From: Bacteroidota bacterium
Lineage (GTDB): Bacteria; Bacteroidota; Bacteroidia; Bacteroidales; JAAUTT01
Assembly (NCBI GenBank): GCA_021779665.1
Contig: JAJYAG010000046.1
Coordinates: 1-39,352, forward strand
Length of the DNA: 39,352 nucleotides
Direction of reading: 5' to 3'
Positions 22,348 through 27,109 of this stretch are shown piece after piece. Each line of letters begins with the position of its first letter. The stretch's first letter is position 1. The notes below the pieces were generated by a model. That model ran no database searches and was not told where the DNA came from. It saw nothing but the letters and a program-made list of their open reading frames with translations. Both the position numbers and the translations under genes were made by a program.

Positions 22348-22481
22348 ATATCACCAATTGATATATCCGTTATACATTAATAATGATGGTCCCGAGTGTT
22401 CTTCTTTATGATGATATGCGGCATTAGGCTTTGTTCCGTTAGATTTATGTTGTGCTAATTAGCACCAATATACAAAATTCC
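22348..22481. repeat. Island direct repeat, copy 1
   Basis: About 134 bp, repeated in the same orientation at 27184-27320. The core 22392-22454 matches 27231-27293 over 63 bp with one mismatch. The 27 bp after it differ at two positions. This copy carries a perfect palindrome GTGCTAATTAGCAC (22452-22465) that is imperfect in copy 2. It is non-coding as far as I can see. Confidence 0.9.
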
Positions 22482-22487
22482 ACCGAT

Positions 22488-22510
22488 AAGCTGAATTTGC
22501 AATTCAGCTT
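22488..22510. repeat. Hairpin left of the IS110 element
   Basis: AAGCTGAATT, loop TGC, AATTCAGCTT: a perfect 10-bp stem. Same architecture as the hairpin at 24114-24136 on the other side of the transposase gene, with two compensating base-pair changes in the stem. Confidence 0.7.
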
Positions 22511-22587
22511 GTTGTATCTGAAAATTTGTAATTTTAATTTTTTGTTGATTTATCATACAGAAGATTTTGTTGCTTGTGTTATGCGGA

Positions 22588-22621
22588 TTGCAAACTTAGC
22601 GTAAGCGGTCTCGTATGTTTG
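22588..22621 (+). promoter_or_regulatory. Promoter for the IS110 guide-RNA candidate
   Basis: TATGTTTG (22614-22621) is an exact -7 match. A TTG at 22588-22590 gives a longish 23-nt spacer. The predicted start falls at the first nucleotides of the folded region, 240 nt before the transposase ATG. Confidence 0.55.
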
Positions 22622-22622
22622 T

Positions 22623-22758
22623 ATGGAAAATGGAACGACCTTTTATTAACGTTGTTTGTTTGTAAATAGGTTCGGAAAAGGATAGAAGAACTCAAGGCGG
22701 TCAGATACGCATTGCGATATCGTTCGGTGAGAAATAGTCTCTATCCTTTATTTTCCAT
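22623..22758 (+). ncRNA. Candidate IS110 bridge RNA
   Basis: Two perfect stems nest and stack: 22623-22631 with 22750-22758 (9 bp) and 22677-22686 with 22740-22749 (10 bp), contiguous on the 3' side. Within the inner stem, CTCA (22691-22694) can pair with TGAG (22727-22730), leaving internal-loop strands of the sort that carry guides in bridge RNAs. A 45-nt branch lies between the two 5' strands. Position (upstream non-coding region of an IS110 transposase), size (about 136 nt plus flanks) and the preceding -7 box all fit a bridge RNA that specifies target and donor. The fold was worked out by eye. Guide matches were not established. Confidence 0.6.
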
Positions 22759-22864
22759 CAAGTTTGAACAAAGTACCTAGGGATATGAAAAAAGCATCAT
22801 AATCTCGAATAAATTCACGAGACAAGACTGTATGGAAGATTCCGATAACTTAAAATAGTTAGTT

Positions 22865-23887
22865 ATGAAAACGACATACTTAAAACAAAATATCGGAAGT
22901 GATATTTCGAAAGATGACTTTAAATGCTCATTTTCCGCATTAACCAATCAACTTGATATAGTAACTATTGGAGCTAAGACTTTCCCAAATTCATCCAAAG
23001 GCTTTATTGATTTGTTAGAATGGATTAAGGCAAAGGGACAAGCAGAAGCTAGCCTTACTTTTACTTTGGAAGCTACAGGTGTCTATTATGAAGCTTTGGC
23101 ATATTTCCTGATTGATCATGGATATTCCCTTTATGTTGTTTTACCTAATCAATCCAAGAAATATGCAGAAAGTTTTGGTACTAAGTCAAAGACCGACAAA
23201 ATAGATGCTAAAATTTTGTCCAAAATGGGCATTGAACGCAAGTTATTGCCCTGGCAGCCGTTAAGTACAAATCTTCTAAAGCTAAAACAGCTCACAAGGG
23301 AAAGAGAGGCTATTGTCCAAGAGCGGATTATGGTAAATAATCAGCTACATGCATATAAGCATCAGGGAAAGATTAATTCTAATTCCATAACACGTTCACA
23401 AAAGCGTATAACATTTTTCAATGACCAAATAAAAGAAATTGAAAGAGAAATAGCTCAGATCGTGAAGCAGGATAAAAAACTCCAACAAAAATTAAATAAC
23501 CTCCAAACCATCCCAGGAGTTGGTTTAATTACGGCTGTTATTATTGTAGCAGAAACCAATGGTTTTGCCAGCATAAAGAGCATTAAACAATTAACAAGTT
23601 TTGCCGGATTAGACATTCAAATAGCCGAATCTGGTTTGTGGAAAGGGAAGAGCAGAATAAGCAAAAAAGGCAATAGTCATATTCGAAAAGCCTTGTACTT
23701 TCCAGCATTTACCAAAATTAAATTTGATAATCAAACACATAAATACTATGAAAAATTGAAAGTAAAAAAAGCTAAACCCATGATTGCTGCAGTAGCCGTA
23801 CAAAGAAAACTTCTGGGCCTAATTTACACGCTTTGGAGAAAGAACGAAGACTTTTTCCCAGACCATAATCAGTCTTCAGCAGCTTAA
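22865..23887 (+). CDS. IS110-family transposase (DEDD recombinase)
   Basis: 340 residues and apparently intact. The N-terminal RuvC-like DEDD domain shows GSDISKDDF (D13), TLEATGVYYEAL (E69) and SKTDKIDAKIL (D111, D114). A coiled-coil linker covers about 140-210. The C-terminal Transposase_20 domain has TIPGVGLITAVIIVAE, TSFAGLDIQIAESG and the KGKSRISKKGNSHIRKAL region, which contains the conserved serine zone. IS110 transposases use an RNA guide from the element's non-coding end to join donor and target DNA. The 5' non-coding stretch here folds accordingly. No frameshift or stop was found, so the element could be active. Confidence 0.95.
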   Translation: MKTTYLKQNIGSDISKDDFKCSFSALTNQLDIVTIGAKTFPNSSKGFIDLLEWIKAKGQAEASLTFTLEATGVYYEALAYFLIDHGYSLYVVLPNQSKKYAESFGTKSKTDKIDAKILSKMGIERKLLPWQPLSTNLLKLKQLTREREAIVQERIMVNNQLHAYKHQGKINSNSITRSQKRITFFNDQIKEIEREIAQIVKQDKKLQQKLNNLQTIPGVGLITAVIIVAETNGFASIKSIKQLTSFAGLDIQIAESGLWKGKSRISKKGNSHIRKALYFPAFTKIKFDNQTHKYYEKLKVKKAKPMIAAVAVQRKLLGLIYTLWRKNEDFFPDHNQSSAA

Positions 23888-23928
23888 AAGACATCAGGGA
23901 ATGAGGAGCATAAGACCTTCCTTTGGCT

Positions 23929-23980
23929 TTGCCCGGTAGGGCAAGAAGAAAAAAGTAGTGGAAACAAATGTCTCCACTAC
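23929..23980 (+). other. Two hairpins downstream of the transposase gene
   Basis: TTGCCC-GGTA-GGGCAA (23929-23944) and GTAGTGGA paired with TCCACTAC (23955-23980). A 13-bp direct repeat CCTTCCTTTGGCT appears at about 23916 and 24017. The tail of 23888-24176 is otherwise without a gene. It may be the IS right end, or a second RNA region as in IS1111-type elements. Confidence 0.45.
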
Positions 23981-24113
23981 ACAAGATAGACTTCAGTTGA
24001 ACGAATCGCATGGAGCCTTCCTTTGGCTGAAACAAAATTACAAAAAGTTCTAATAAAATTTGGAATTTAACACAGTACCTCACGAACGGCAGTGAGTAAT
24101 CCTGCAATGTTTC

Positions 24114-24136
24114 AAGCGGATTTGCAAAATCCGCTT
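24114..24136. repeat. Hairpin right of the IS110 element
   Basis: AAGCGGATTT, loop GCA, AAATCCGCTT: a perfect 10-bp stem, of the same type as that at 22488-22510. It also lies 41 nt beyond the stop of the HEPN-like gene on the minus strand and could terminate it. Confidence 0.7.
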
Positions 24137-24176
24137 AGCGCTTCGATTTAGATTTACCGCTTATCTGGGGCTTTTT

Positions 24177-24902
24177 TCATTCATTTATTAGGTGTTGTTT
24201 TAATTCATCAATGAGTGTTATTAGAGAAGTCAATGAATAATCAATATTCTCAACAATCTTTTTAGATTTAGTAAAATTACCAATGCCAAAATTAAGATAT
24301 CTCTTACCCTCCTCTTCGGTAATATTGATTCTGTAATCAGATATTGTTGGGGTAAATCGGTGGGCAAATCCATTTCGAAATTCAGAAGCAACTTTTGTAG
24401 CCTTTAGAAAAGCCATTGATGAATCTTTAACTTTTACTTCATTGATTTTCCTGATAAAATCCTCATTAAAATGCAACTTGTTTTCTTTAATATTGATTTT
24501 GTAATATAGCCTTATGATTTGTGCTATTATGTCACGAGATGAAAAAAAGTAATAATAAAAGATCTCAGCAAAATAATCAAACTGCAATCTATTAACAATC
24601 TCGAGGTGAGAGCAATTTGAATAATCATCATTAAACCCACGCTTGTAGCTTGTTAACATAAAAATGTATGTCTCTTTTAGAGTTCCAAAGCGGTTAAGTA
24701 AACAATTATCCCACCAATAAAGATTCTCCTTTTTCAATGCATCATCAAAAGATAATTCATCATTAATTAATGATTCTAATCCACTTTTGTATTTGAAGCC
24801 AAATGAAGTTAATGTAGGATAATTCTTTATAACTTCCTTTCTTTCATCCAAAGAAGGATATTTATAATCATCCGCTTTTATTATAATCTCTTTTTTACTC
24901 AT
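24177..24902 (-). CDS. HEPN-like domain protein (Cthe_2314-like), possible RNase effector
   Basis: 241 residues, AT-rich coding sequence. The helical centre (YFAEIFYYYFFSSRDIIAQIIRLYY) and the R176-NGFA-H181 motif, an RxxxxH, fit HEPN domains, in particular the Cthe_2314-like group. HEPN proteins with this motif are often RNases in toxin-antitoxin and phage-defence systems, but some are inactive scaffolds. No nucleotidyltransferase antitoxin adjoins it: the nearest partner is the 78-residue gene 56 nt upstream on the same strand, probably in the same transcript. Assignment rests on motif and predicted helices only. Confidence 0.6.
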   Translation of the reverse strand: MSKKEIIIKADDYKYPSLDERKEVIKNYPTLTSFGFKYKSGLESLINDELSFDDALKKENLYWWDNCLLNRFGTLKETYIFMLTSYKRGFNDDYSNCSHLEIVNRLQFDYFAEIFYYYFFSSRDIIAQIIRLYYKINIKENKLHFNEDFIRKINEVKVKDSSMAFLKATKVASEFRNGFAHRFTPTISDYRINITEEEGKRYLNFGIGNFTKSKKIVENIDYSLTSLITLIDELKQHLINE

Positions 24903-25375: not shown

Positions 25376-27109
25376 TTATATTAAGCTAATTATATCACAG
25401 TCACTTTTTTCTTCATTACAAACATTTTTTTGGATTTCGGCAATCCATTTAAATCCATTTTCACAAAACATATTATATGTTTCTTCTACTTTTATAGGGT
25501 CAACTTCTTTACTTTCTGGGGGAATTTGAAAATACTCTCTGTTTCTACCACCCACAATAATTATTGTGGGCCTAGCGTTGTGCGAAAAATCCCTATGGAT
25601 ACTTTCTACTCTTAATGAATTTTGTAGAACATACGTTGTAGTAAGGAAAACTTTAATAAAAATATCATACTTATCGTCAATTGTTTTAATTTCATTTCTT
25701 TGAATTCGGACAAACTGTTCCTCAAGTAATGGAATTGCTATATTTAAAACTACAGAATTGTAAGTTTGTTCCGACAACAATGATATAAAATGATGATTGT
25801 CTATAACATAAAACCATCGCTTTTCTATAATACTTTTTATTTTATTTAATATTATAATTTTATTCGATTCACTAACATTACTTATATAATTTGCGGCAAA
25901 GTATTCCTGTAAAGACCTATGAGGAAACGTATATTCTACTCCTTCTTTATTTAAGATACCAATTGCAACTTGTAAGTCCTCTATAAGTTTTTGGTCATCA
26001 AACTTTATATTATTCTTTTTTTCTTTTATAAAATTGAGTTTAGATTCGATATATTCTGATTGAAAAAGAAATTTTTCATCAAAATAAGAGATAAAAGAAA
26101 ATAGCTTTAATACTTCTTCAAATCCTTCTTTAGATAAGCCACTCTGTTTTTCTCTTACATATGACAATTTTGACACACTATCATGTACAGAATATAATGT
26201 ATCAAAAACTTGTTTATAAAAATCACTCCGTTTTTGAGGTATTTCAGAATAGGATTGAAATGTTAAAATAAACATTGATAAAAGTAGTGGGTTACTTAAA
26301 AATGCTTTATAAGAACTTCCTTCAATTTGAGAAATTGCTTTAATTATTTTTTCAGTTAATTCATTTTCGGAAGCCGGCAACTGTTTTTTCACAAACGCAG
26401 GTATCTCACCGTCTAACAATTCACACACAATATAATTTGTGAACAATGGTAGTGTATCAATATTTGTATACGGTCTTGATGTAATTAGATAATAATTACT
26501 AGGGTATTTTCCTACAAACCTATCAACATCATTTGTGATGGTTTCTTTTTTTGTTGAATTTATCTCGTCATAACCATCGAGAAAGAATATAAAAGCACCT
26601 GAATTTAACAATCTATCAATAATCTCCTTTGAAAACCCCAATTTTAAAAATAAGAAAATTTCATCAATAATATAATCTGTCAAATTACTTTTATATTCGT
26701 TTAAATACCTCAATTCAACTTTTATTGGAATTTTAAATTTTAACTCTACAGAATTAATAAATAAATATTTAACAATAGTACTTTTCCCACTACCAGCATT
26801 ACCAATTAAAGTAATATAATTTGTTTTTTTAAATAATCCAGATACATTTTCAGTCGATATTCTTTTTATCTTTTTATCATAATACTGTGAATTATTATAC
26901 GGAACTATATGCAACGGCAGATAGAAATCAGTTAATTTGACTGGTTCAGAACGATGTAAAAGAGTCTTTGCAAAGAAATTCTTTTTATATTCAATTGTTT
27001 GATATTCTAAAATTCTATTTTTTGCAATTTGCTTTAATTCATTTCCTAAACCTTTTATCAAACTATTGATTGGTGATTCTAAAAAATCCTTGAATTCAGA
27101 AAGTTCCAT
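25376..27109 (-). CDS. NACHT-domain STAND NTPase, likely phage-defence protein
   Basis: 577 residues, strongly AT-rich. An N-terminal helical region (1-95) precedes the NACHT ATPase: Walker A LIGNAGSGKSTIVKY (about 101-115), Walker B FIFFLDGYDE (173-182), the arginine-containing YLITSRPY (207-214), and SNPLLLSMF (272-280). The winged-helix end carries FPHRSLQEYFAANYI (395-409), typical of NACHT modules. A C-terminal part of about 165 residues lacks obvious leucine-rich, TPR or WD repeats. Compact bacterial NACHT proteins of this size (bNACHT) protect against phages. Neither the N-terminal nor the C-terminal part is a recognised effector to me. It lies inside the direct-repeat-bracketed island as a single gene. 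Confidence 0.9.
   Translation of the reverse strand: MELSEFKDFLESPINSLIKGLGNELKQIAKNRILEYQTIEYKKNFFAKTLLHRSEPVKLTDFYLPLHIVPYNNSQYYDKKIKRISTENVSGLFKKTNYITLIGNAGSGKSTIVKYLFINSVELKFKIPIKVELRYLNEYKSNLTDYIIDEIFLFLKLGFSKEIIDRLLNSGAFIFFLDGYDEINSTKKETITNDVDRFVGKYPSNYYLITSRPYTNIDTLPLFTNYIVCELLDGEIPAFVKKQLPASENELTEKIIKAISQIEGSSYKAFLSNPLLLSMFILTFQSYSEIPQKRSDFYKQVFDTLYSVHDSVSKLSYVREKQSGLSKEGFEEVLKLFSFISYFDEKFLFQSEYIESKLNFIKEKKNNIKFDDQKLIEDLQVAIGILNKEGVEYTFPHRSLQEYFAANYISNVSESNKIIILNKIKSIIEKRWFYVIDNHHFISLLSEQTYNSVVLNIAIPLLEEQFVRIQRNEIKTIDDKYDIFIKVFLTTTYVLQNSLRVESIHRDFSHNARPTIIIVGGRNREYFQIPPESKEVDPIKVEETYNMFCENGFKWIAEIQKNVCNEEKSDCDIISLI

What the first reader, a model, noticed from the sequence alone, without database searches (positions are those of the whole stretch)
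22588..22758. Bridge-RNA candidate with its own promoter in the IS110 left end
An exact -7 box (TATGTTTG) starts a region with two perfect stacked stems (9 and 10 bp) and an internal loop, directly upstream of an intact IS110 transposase. This fits the recently described RNA-guided IS110 recombination and could give a new bridge RNA from Bacteroidetes.
Basis: partly seen in the sequence, partly recalled or inferred. Interest (0 to 1): 0.65.

Follow-up and report, generated by a model that had tools for sequence, protein, structure and literature searches.

The report
Bridge RNA of a Bacteroidota IS110
A jumping gene in what looks like a Bacteroidota bacterium carries a guide RNA of the known "bridge RNA" kind: one loop matches the site where it sits and the other matches its own ends, and the RNA's promoter seems to become complete only when the element has excised and closed into a circle.

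Summary
The finding is real but misdrawn. The window holds an IS110 element (22610-24080, 1469 bp) whose left end encodes a bridge RNA, about 22625-22840. Across 17 elements (relatives 35-73% identical in transposase) the RNA has a target loop and a donor loop; 31 of 32 counted pairs show compensatory changes, and 89.7% of cells pair against 66.3% in shuffles. Guides fit their own element's target and ends better than other elements' (0 of 100000 permutations). The window's rebuilt target scores 12 of 15, reached at 1 of 78673 window positions. A covariance model finds held-out Bacteroidota relatives and none of six IS110 loci from other phyla. Corrections: 22588-22609 is host DNA; the interval omits nearly all of the donor loop; the 9-bp stem joins the wrong partners; the promoter is not the left end's own. 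A -33 TTG lies in the right end, 20 nt from the -7 box on the circle, in 15 of 17 elements. Weak points: the window's right target guide is 5 of 7, and no transcript data exist. New member of a known kind. Unexplained: a conserved right-end module.

The parts
22610..24080 (+). IS110 element, core CT to core CT (1469 bp counting one core)
   Evidence: Homology to L012 starts and ends abruptly here; CT cores at 22610-22611 and 24079-24080
22588..22609 (+). Left target flank (host DNA, outside the element); LT = AAGCGGT then CT
   Evidence: Outside the region shared with L012 apart from the target-like last letters
24081..24095 (+). Right target flank, RT = CT|CACGAACGG
22614..22621 (+). -7 promoter box TATGTTTG (TAnnTTTG)
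   Evidence: Sequence; exact TAnnTTTG in 10 of the 17 elements, variants starting TAT in the other 7 (left ends were located by eye through this box, so its presence is partly by construction); consensus from PMC7366714
24059..24062 (+). -33 TTTG in the right end, 20 nt from the -7 box on the circle
   Evidence: TTG at exactly 20 nt in 15 of 17 circle junctions; TTG at 18-22 nt in 3 of 17 integrated left junctions (L030 has too little flank to test)
22625..22840 (+). Bridge RNA, approximate extent (start and end inferred; CM match 22638-22838)
   Evidence: no transcript data
22636..22674 (+). 5' stem-loop (single-sequence fold only)
   Evidence: not recovered in the 17-sequence consensus
22677..22749 (+). 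Target-binding loop; outer helix 22677-22685/22741-22749, inner hairpin 22704-22710/22714-22721 with bulged A 22717
22695..22702 (+). Left target guide AGGCGGTC (7 of 8 match LT AAGCGGTC)
22725..22731 (+). Right target guide CGGTGAG (5 of 7 complementary to RT)
22750..22840 (+). Donor-binding loop; base helix 22755-22758/22832-22835 (in this copy extendable to 22750-22758/22832-22840), helix 22762-22765/22825-22828, inner hairpin 22780-22787/22798-22806
22770..22778 (+). Left donor guide AAAGTACCT (right-end tip is ACAGTACCT)
22817..22821 (+). Right donor guide ACGAG (pairs with left-end tip CTCGT); 22822 is the handshake-guide position
22865..23887 (+). IS110 recombinase; D13, E69, D111, D114 and S256 proposed as counterparts of the IS621 DEDD + S residues
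   Evidence: PF01548 and PF02371, NF033542, ISCro4/IS621 homology. E69, D111, D114 and S256 align to ISCro4 there; D13 lies outside that alignment and is assigned by motif (positions)
23888..24078 (+). Long right end with conserved module: repeat A 23890-23928, leftward terminator-like hairpin 23955-23980, repeat B 23989-24028

Best explanation
The left end of this IS110 element encodes a bridge RNA. Inferred working: the recombinase excises the element as a circle; joining right end to left end brings a -33 TTTG to a -7 TATGTTTG at 20-nt spacing and so builds a Bacteroidota-type promoter. This transcribes an RNA of about 215 nt that binds the recombinase. Its first internal loop pairs with the target (GCGGTCT|CACG) and its second with the element's own joined ends (AGTACCT|CGTAT). 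The recombinase then exchanges strands at the shared CT core. Shown here, by sequence comparison: anatomy, covariation of helices, guide-target and guide-donor matching, and the split promoter. Not shown: transcription, RNA-protein binding, circle formation, activity.
For: Helices: 31 of 34 predicted pairs compensatory; 89.7% of cells paired vs 66.3% shuffled, 158 double-change cells vs 55.9, slid controls 43-48%. Guides, anchor-free scan of the whole left end: own sequences beat permuted partners for LT, RT and LD (0 of 20000 each) and RD (2 of 20000); own best or tied in 11 of 16, 10 of 17, 15 of 17 and 16 of 17. At anchored positions: LTG 6.44 of 8 vs 3.56, RTG 6.24 of 7 vs 3.44, LDG 6.88 of 8 vs 5.78, RDG 4.88 of 5 vs 4.27, each 0 of 100000. 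The left-end tip and the RDG match exactly over 5 nt in 15 of 17 (CTCGT/ACGAG 7, CTCAT/ATGAG 5, CTCCT/AGGAG 3); the other two need one G-U pair. Window alone: 12 of 15, reached at 1 of 78673 positions and 0 of 4069 CT positions. Handshake position of the donor loop 12 of 17, p 0.001. Five copies of one relative all sit in [AG]GGCTGTCT|AAAAAGG, as its guides predict. CM finds 8 of 16 held-out loci (7 distinct elements), including the 5 Bacteroidota plasmid elements fetched, and none of the 6 loci from other phyla. Promoter.
Against: The window's RTG is only 5 of 7 and L012's only 3 of 7; the weakest LTG is L021 with 4 of 8. In the anchor-free scan the window's left end matches another element's LT or RT as well as or better than its own (LT 9-mer 7 own, 8 best other; RT 6 own, 7 best other), although its own best LT, RT and LD matches fall on the proposed guides; for RD the scan reports another place with 5 of 7, and by hand count the RDG ties at 5 of 7, so the right donor guide rests on 5 nt. 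The second handshake position is not significant (9 of 17, p 0.07). The 5' stem-loop was not recovered as consensus. Anchors for searches were chosen by eye after some matches had been seen. The 17 elements are related, so counts are not independent. No RNA or activity data exist here.
Confidence: 0.95

Rival explanations
1. The structured region is a 5' UTR regulatory leader of the transposase mRNA (attenuator or translation control), not a guide RNA.
For: It lies directly upstream of and in the same sense as the ORF; the single-sequence fold is ordinary (z about -2; -1.6 for the longer stretch).
Against: A leader would not track the flanking host DNA from element to element or the element's own tips. 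Dual use as guide and leader is not excluded.
Confidence: 0.03
2. The bridge RNA exists but this copy is decayed: the ORF is intact, but guide mismatches (RTG 5 of 7) mean it no longer moves. (Compatible with the main explanation of what the region is.)
For: Single full copy in the assembly; RTG 5 of 7; the integrated copy lacks a TTG at the usual spacing (nearest at 23 nt).
Against: ORF intact with the expected catalytic motifs; LTG 7 of 8; both cores and both promoter halves present; flanks may have drifted after insertion.
Confidence: 0.25
3. The reader's two-stem fold (9 + 10 bp stacked) is the functional RNA structure.
For: Both helices are real complementarities in this copy and lie in its minimum-energy fold; with G-U pairs the first extends to 12 bp.
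Against: No common helix at that place in relatives; its 3' arm belongs to a covarying helix with 22832-22835; its 5' arm starts two bases after the -7 box, so part of it would lie upstream of the start site (start position inferred).
Confidence: 0.03

Closest known systems
IS621 bridge RNA (E. coli IS110 group; PMC11208160 sections 4-7 and 12 read, PMC11208158 passages)
   Same: Left-end RNA upstream of the recombinase; two internal loops with LTG/RTG and LDG/RDG; CT core in the pairings; promoter rebuilt at the circle junction; recombinase homologous over residues 37-331.
   Different: Promoter is the Bacteroidota TTTG/TAnnTTTG type instead of sigma-70; right end about 190 nt with an extra module; no Rfam family matches the region.
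ISCro4 recombinase (PDB 9t56)
   Same: Best solved homologue, E 3.7e-30.
   Different: Distant protein; its RNA was not compared here.
seekRNA of ISEc21 (IS110) and ISEc11 (IS1111) (PMC11187229, passages)
   Same: Same concept under another name: noncoding-region RNA guides target choice; promoter formed at joined ends.
   Different: Elements studied in E. coli; in ISEc11 (IS1111) the noncoding region is downstream of the transposase gene, here upstream.

Membership tests
IS110-family bridge RNA element | DEDD recombinase with PF01548 and PF02371 | tested here: met
   D13/E69/D111/D114/S256 positions (four aligned to ISCro4, D13 by motif)
IS110-family bridge RNA element | RNA in the left end (IS110 group), LE longer than RE | tested here: met
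   LE 255, RE 191 nt; LE longer than RE in 17 of 17 (some stop positions and the right end of L020 are estimates)
IS110-family bridge RNA element | Two stem-loops with internal loops, conserved by covariation | tested here: met
IS110-family bridge RNA element | 5' stem-loop before the target loop | tested here: inconclusive
   Present in the single-sequence fold, not in the consensus
IS110-family bridge RNA element | First loop matches target, second matches element ends | tested here: met
   window's RTG only 5 of 7
IS110-family bridge RNA element | Shared core dinucleotide at both ends | tested here: met
   CT at both ends in 17 of 17, though placement at CT was a requirement of the script; independent support from the L012 homology limits
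IS110-family bridge RNA element | Promoter reconstituted on the circle | tested here: met
   By sequence only: 15 of 17
IS110-family bridge RNA element | RNA expressed, bound by recombinase and needed for recombination | not testable with these tools
   Needs bench work
IS1111 group | RNA in the right end and subterminal inverted repeats of 7-17 bp | tested here: not met
   Bridge RNA is in the left end. No inverted repeat of 12 nt or more joins the two ends; shorter ones were not tested

The most novel reading that the evidence does not exclude
The subgroup with a long right end carries a second noncoding component. Two repeats (A and B), which tend to agree within an element while differing between elements, flank a hairpin that reads as a leftward intrinsic terminator. 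It could shield the element from host antisense transcription, or give a second RNA that regulates the recombinase or works with the bridge RNA.
Probability: 0.15. Interest if true: 0.55.

Novelty: new member of a known kind. Interest (0 to 1): 0.38.

Why it matters
It gives a full bridge-RNA anatomy with guide-target evidence for a Bacteroidota clade whose members aim at different sites, and so natural guide/target pairs for a programmable recombinase. The -33/-7 promoter that forms only on the circle, at a fixed 20-nt spacing, is comparative support for a -33 element in Bacteroidota (one study quoted in PMC7366714 could not identify it), and it suggests why the guide RNA would be made mainly by excised circles.

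Tried and rejected
Rejected: the 9-bp stem as functional; an IS1111-type right-end bridge RNA. Led nowhere: Rfam, no match at gathering score over the window or at E up to 1 over 22560-24120; viral contigs, no relative; the 23-nt empty site in the own genome, none with up to 3 mismatches; a 16-nt version with up to 2 mismatches, 1 match but also 1 in the reversed control; a consensus fold of the right-end module, none convincing; sigma-70 promoter scan, 6 found against 5.4 expected; a pattern over the 71 fetched loci, none. A second handshake test was not significant.

Rows dropped before the 17-element counts: L044/L013 (one element by its sequence, 5' part of the left end missing, stop in the ORF of L044), L046 (duplicated left end, right end unclear), L031 (no left end seen), L014-L017 (distant), L019 (24% paralogue), four further copies of L024 (L032-L035), and L006-L008 (right end only). 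Plasmid hits came later and were kept out of the model on purpose; of the 10 Bacteroidota records among the 20 listed, 5 were fetched. L030 has only 3 nt of left flank and was left out of LT tests (n = 16) but kept elsewhere (n = 17). L020 (right end 8 nt after the inferred stop) and L025 (atypical box) have uncertain ends; L028's LTG anchor was probably misplaced and was left as scored.

Full report
What is there. The transposase at 22865-23887 is a 340-aa IS110 recombinase (PF01548 E 1.6e-26, PF02371 E 3e-22; NCBIfam NF033542 'IS110 family RNA-guided transposase', 202 bits against a cut-off of 140). Its solved homologues are the ISCro4 (E 3.7e-30) and IS621 (E 3.4e-29) recombinases. The nearest relative found is L012 (73% aa, Bacteroidales MAG CP070654.1). 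DNA alignment of the two runs from 22604 to 24081 and stops on both sides. With a CT core, as in IS621, the ends are 22610-22611 and 24079-24080.

Comparative set. Protein searches of 395 genomes of the class (13 with a match at E 1e-60, own included), 393 of the order (3 at 1e-75, own included), 5 of the family (1 at 1e-50, own only) and 395 of the phylum (6 at 1e-75, own included) gave relatives (the samples overlap). From these and the genome-contig hits, 17 elements, the window's included, with recognisable left and right ends were kept; dropped rows are listed under Tried and rejected. The ends were located by eye through the left TAT box and a right [CT]AG[AT]A[CT]CT tip, so those two motifs are partly by construction.

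RNA structure. A de novo consensus fold of the 17 left ends gave 34 pairs, 31 with changes on both sides. Counting 32 of those pairs (two lone pairs removed): 89.7% of cells paired against 66.3 +/- 1.3% in shuffles; 158 double-change cells against 55.9; slid controls 43-48%. Helices: target-loop outer (80.9% paired), target-loop inner with a bulged A (98.3%), donor-loop base (85.3%), donor-loop outer (94.1%), donor-loop inner (91.9%). The 9-bp stem of the finding is not among them; its 3' arm belongs to the donor-loop base, pairing with 22832-22840. The 5' stem-loop appears only in the single-sequence fold.

Guides. In a scan of the whole left end without anchors, own target and donor sequences fit better than those of other elements (LT, RT, LD 0 of 20000 permutations; RD 2 of 20000), with own best or tied in 11 of 16, 10 of 17, 15 of 17 and 16 of 17. 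For the window the best own LT, RT and LD matches fall on the LTG, RTG and LDG, but some other element's LT (8 against 7 of 9) and RT (7 against 6 of 8) fit its left end better, and the 7-nt RD match is a tie at 5 of 7 between the RDG and another place. At anchored positions: LTG own 6.44 of 8 against 3.56 (own best or tied 15 of 16), RTG 6.24 of 7 against 3.44 (16 of 17); LDG 6.88 of 8 against 5.78 and RDG 4.88 of 5 against 4.27 (16 of 17 each). The anchors were set by eye after some matches had been seen. Weak cases: L021 (LTG 4 of 8), L012 (RTG 3 of 7), the window and L026 (RTG 5 of 7). The joined target of the window scores 12 of 15 with its guides; one of 78673 positions of the window and its complement reaches this, and none of the 4069 CT positions. 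A nucleotide at the IS621 'handshake' place of the donor loop (PMC11208158, passages) is complementary to target position 7 in 12 of 17 (mean of permutations 6.9, p 0.001); the mirror position in the target loop is not significant (9 of 17, p 0.07). Five copies of the L024 element in one genome share [AG]GGCTGTCT|AAAAAGG at their targets, matching that element's guides.

Held-out test. A covariance model from the 17 found 8 of 16 other loci: five Bacteroidota plasmid elements (L049-L053, 5 fetched of 10 such records listed), L046, and the truncated L013/L044 (one element). It missed Deinococcus, Sphingobium and the four Ktedonobacteria loci, the distant paralogue L019, and L031. Among 16 right-end loci it also found L062 (94 bits) and L066 (35 bits). 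In the own genome it finds only this copy.

Promoter. The sigma-ABfr consensus is TAnnTTTG at -7 and TTTG near -33 (PMC7366714, one passage read; PMC4747536, two passages, -7 only). TAnnTTTG is exact in 10 of 17 elements. Joined as a circle, TTG lies exactly 20 nt before the -7 box in 15 of 17 (not L020, L027). In the integrated state a TTG at 18-22 nt occurs in 3 of 17 (L030 untestable), against a background of 0.116 per site; the window's own is at 23 nt. So the promoter is split between the two ends and, by sequence, usually complete only in the circle, as reported for IS621 with a sigma-70 promoter (PMC11208160, sections 4-7 and 12 read; passages).

Target. Palindrome-containing repeats seen elsewhere in the genome lie on both sides of the insertion. 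A search for CTTAGCGTWAGCGGTCTCACGA with up to 3 mismatches gave 2 matches elsewhere in the own genome (0 and 3 mismatches) and 2 (3 mismatches) in one of the four other genomes of the genus, with no match to the reversed control (5 genomes). The W was put in after the first of these copies had been seen, so its exactness is by construction, and the shorter pattern that first found it did no better than its control (1 and 1). That copy lies between ORFs. This is modest support for a dispersed intergenic target, which would fit the preference of IS110 elements for repeats stated in PMC11208160.

Right end. The 191-nt right end holds two diverged repeats (A 23890-23928, B 23989-24028) and a hairpin (23955-23980) that scans as a leftward terminator (1 found, 1.5 expected by chance, so the scan alone proves nothing). 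By eye a run of A precedes this hairpin in 8 of the 9 loci where that stretch is held in full (not L065). A DNA search with the L012 right end matched 16 of 393 genomes of the order, own included, some only in short stretches. Of the further loci with alignments over 100 nt, L062 carries a full element, L059 a frameshifted fragment, L058 and L065 no homologue of this transposase in the stretch held, and L060 and L063 begin at contig ends. In 6 of 8 loci where the end of both repeats can be read, A and B end in the same three letters although loci differ (not L012, L063; by eye). No convincing common fold was found, so function is open.

Novelty. The listings of five library searches showed no paper on a Bacteroidota bridge RNA (searches listed in full, one review; two searches listed 20 of 206 and 12 of 47). 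The words bacteroid, flavobact and porphyromonas are absent from the main texts of PMC11208160 and PMC11187229. The large covariation sets of PMC11208160 may include such elements; their supplements were not read. I rate it a new member of a known kind with a clade-typical promoter.

Noticed in passing
23888-24078: Conserved long right end: repeats A and B around a hairpin preceded on the + strand by a run of A, which would read as an intrinsic terminator on the - strand; similar right ends occur in other genomes of the same order.
   Followed up: partly
L006, L007, L008 (ends of three contigs of the same genome): Right ends of another related IS110 element at three places, all followed by the same right target CTTTTTGGG; its inner part was not found in the assembly searched.
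   Followed up: partly
L058: A complete copy of the right-end module without a homologue of this transposase in 3.2 kb, so possibly a remnant or a non-autonomous derivative.
   Followed up: partly
L024 and L032-L035: Five copies of one IS110 element sit in the same short target; the flanks resemble the end of another insertion sequence (this resemblance is recalled, not tested).
   Followed up: no
22480-22545 and 24098-24165: Palindrome-containing intergenic repeats on both sides of the element, with similar stretches elsewhere in the genome.
   Followed up: partly
24177-24902 (-) and 25376-27109 (-): A HEPN-domain protein (PF18730) and a protein with NACHT/STAND matches below the curated cut-offs lie next to the element; possibly a defence-like neighbourhood.
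   Followed up: no
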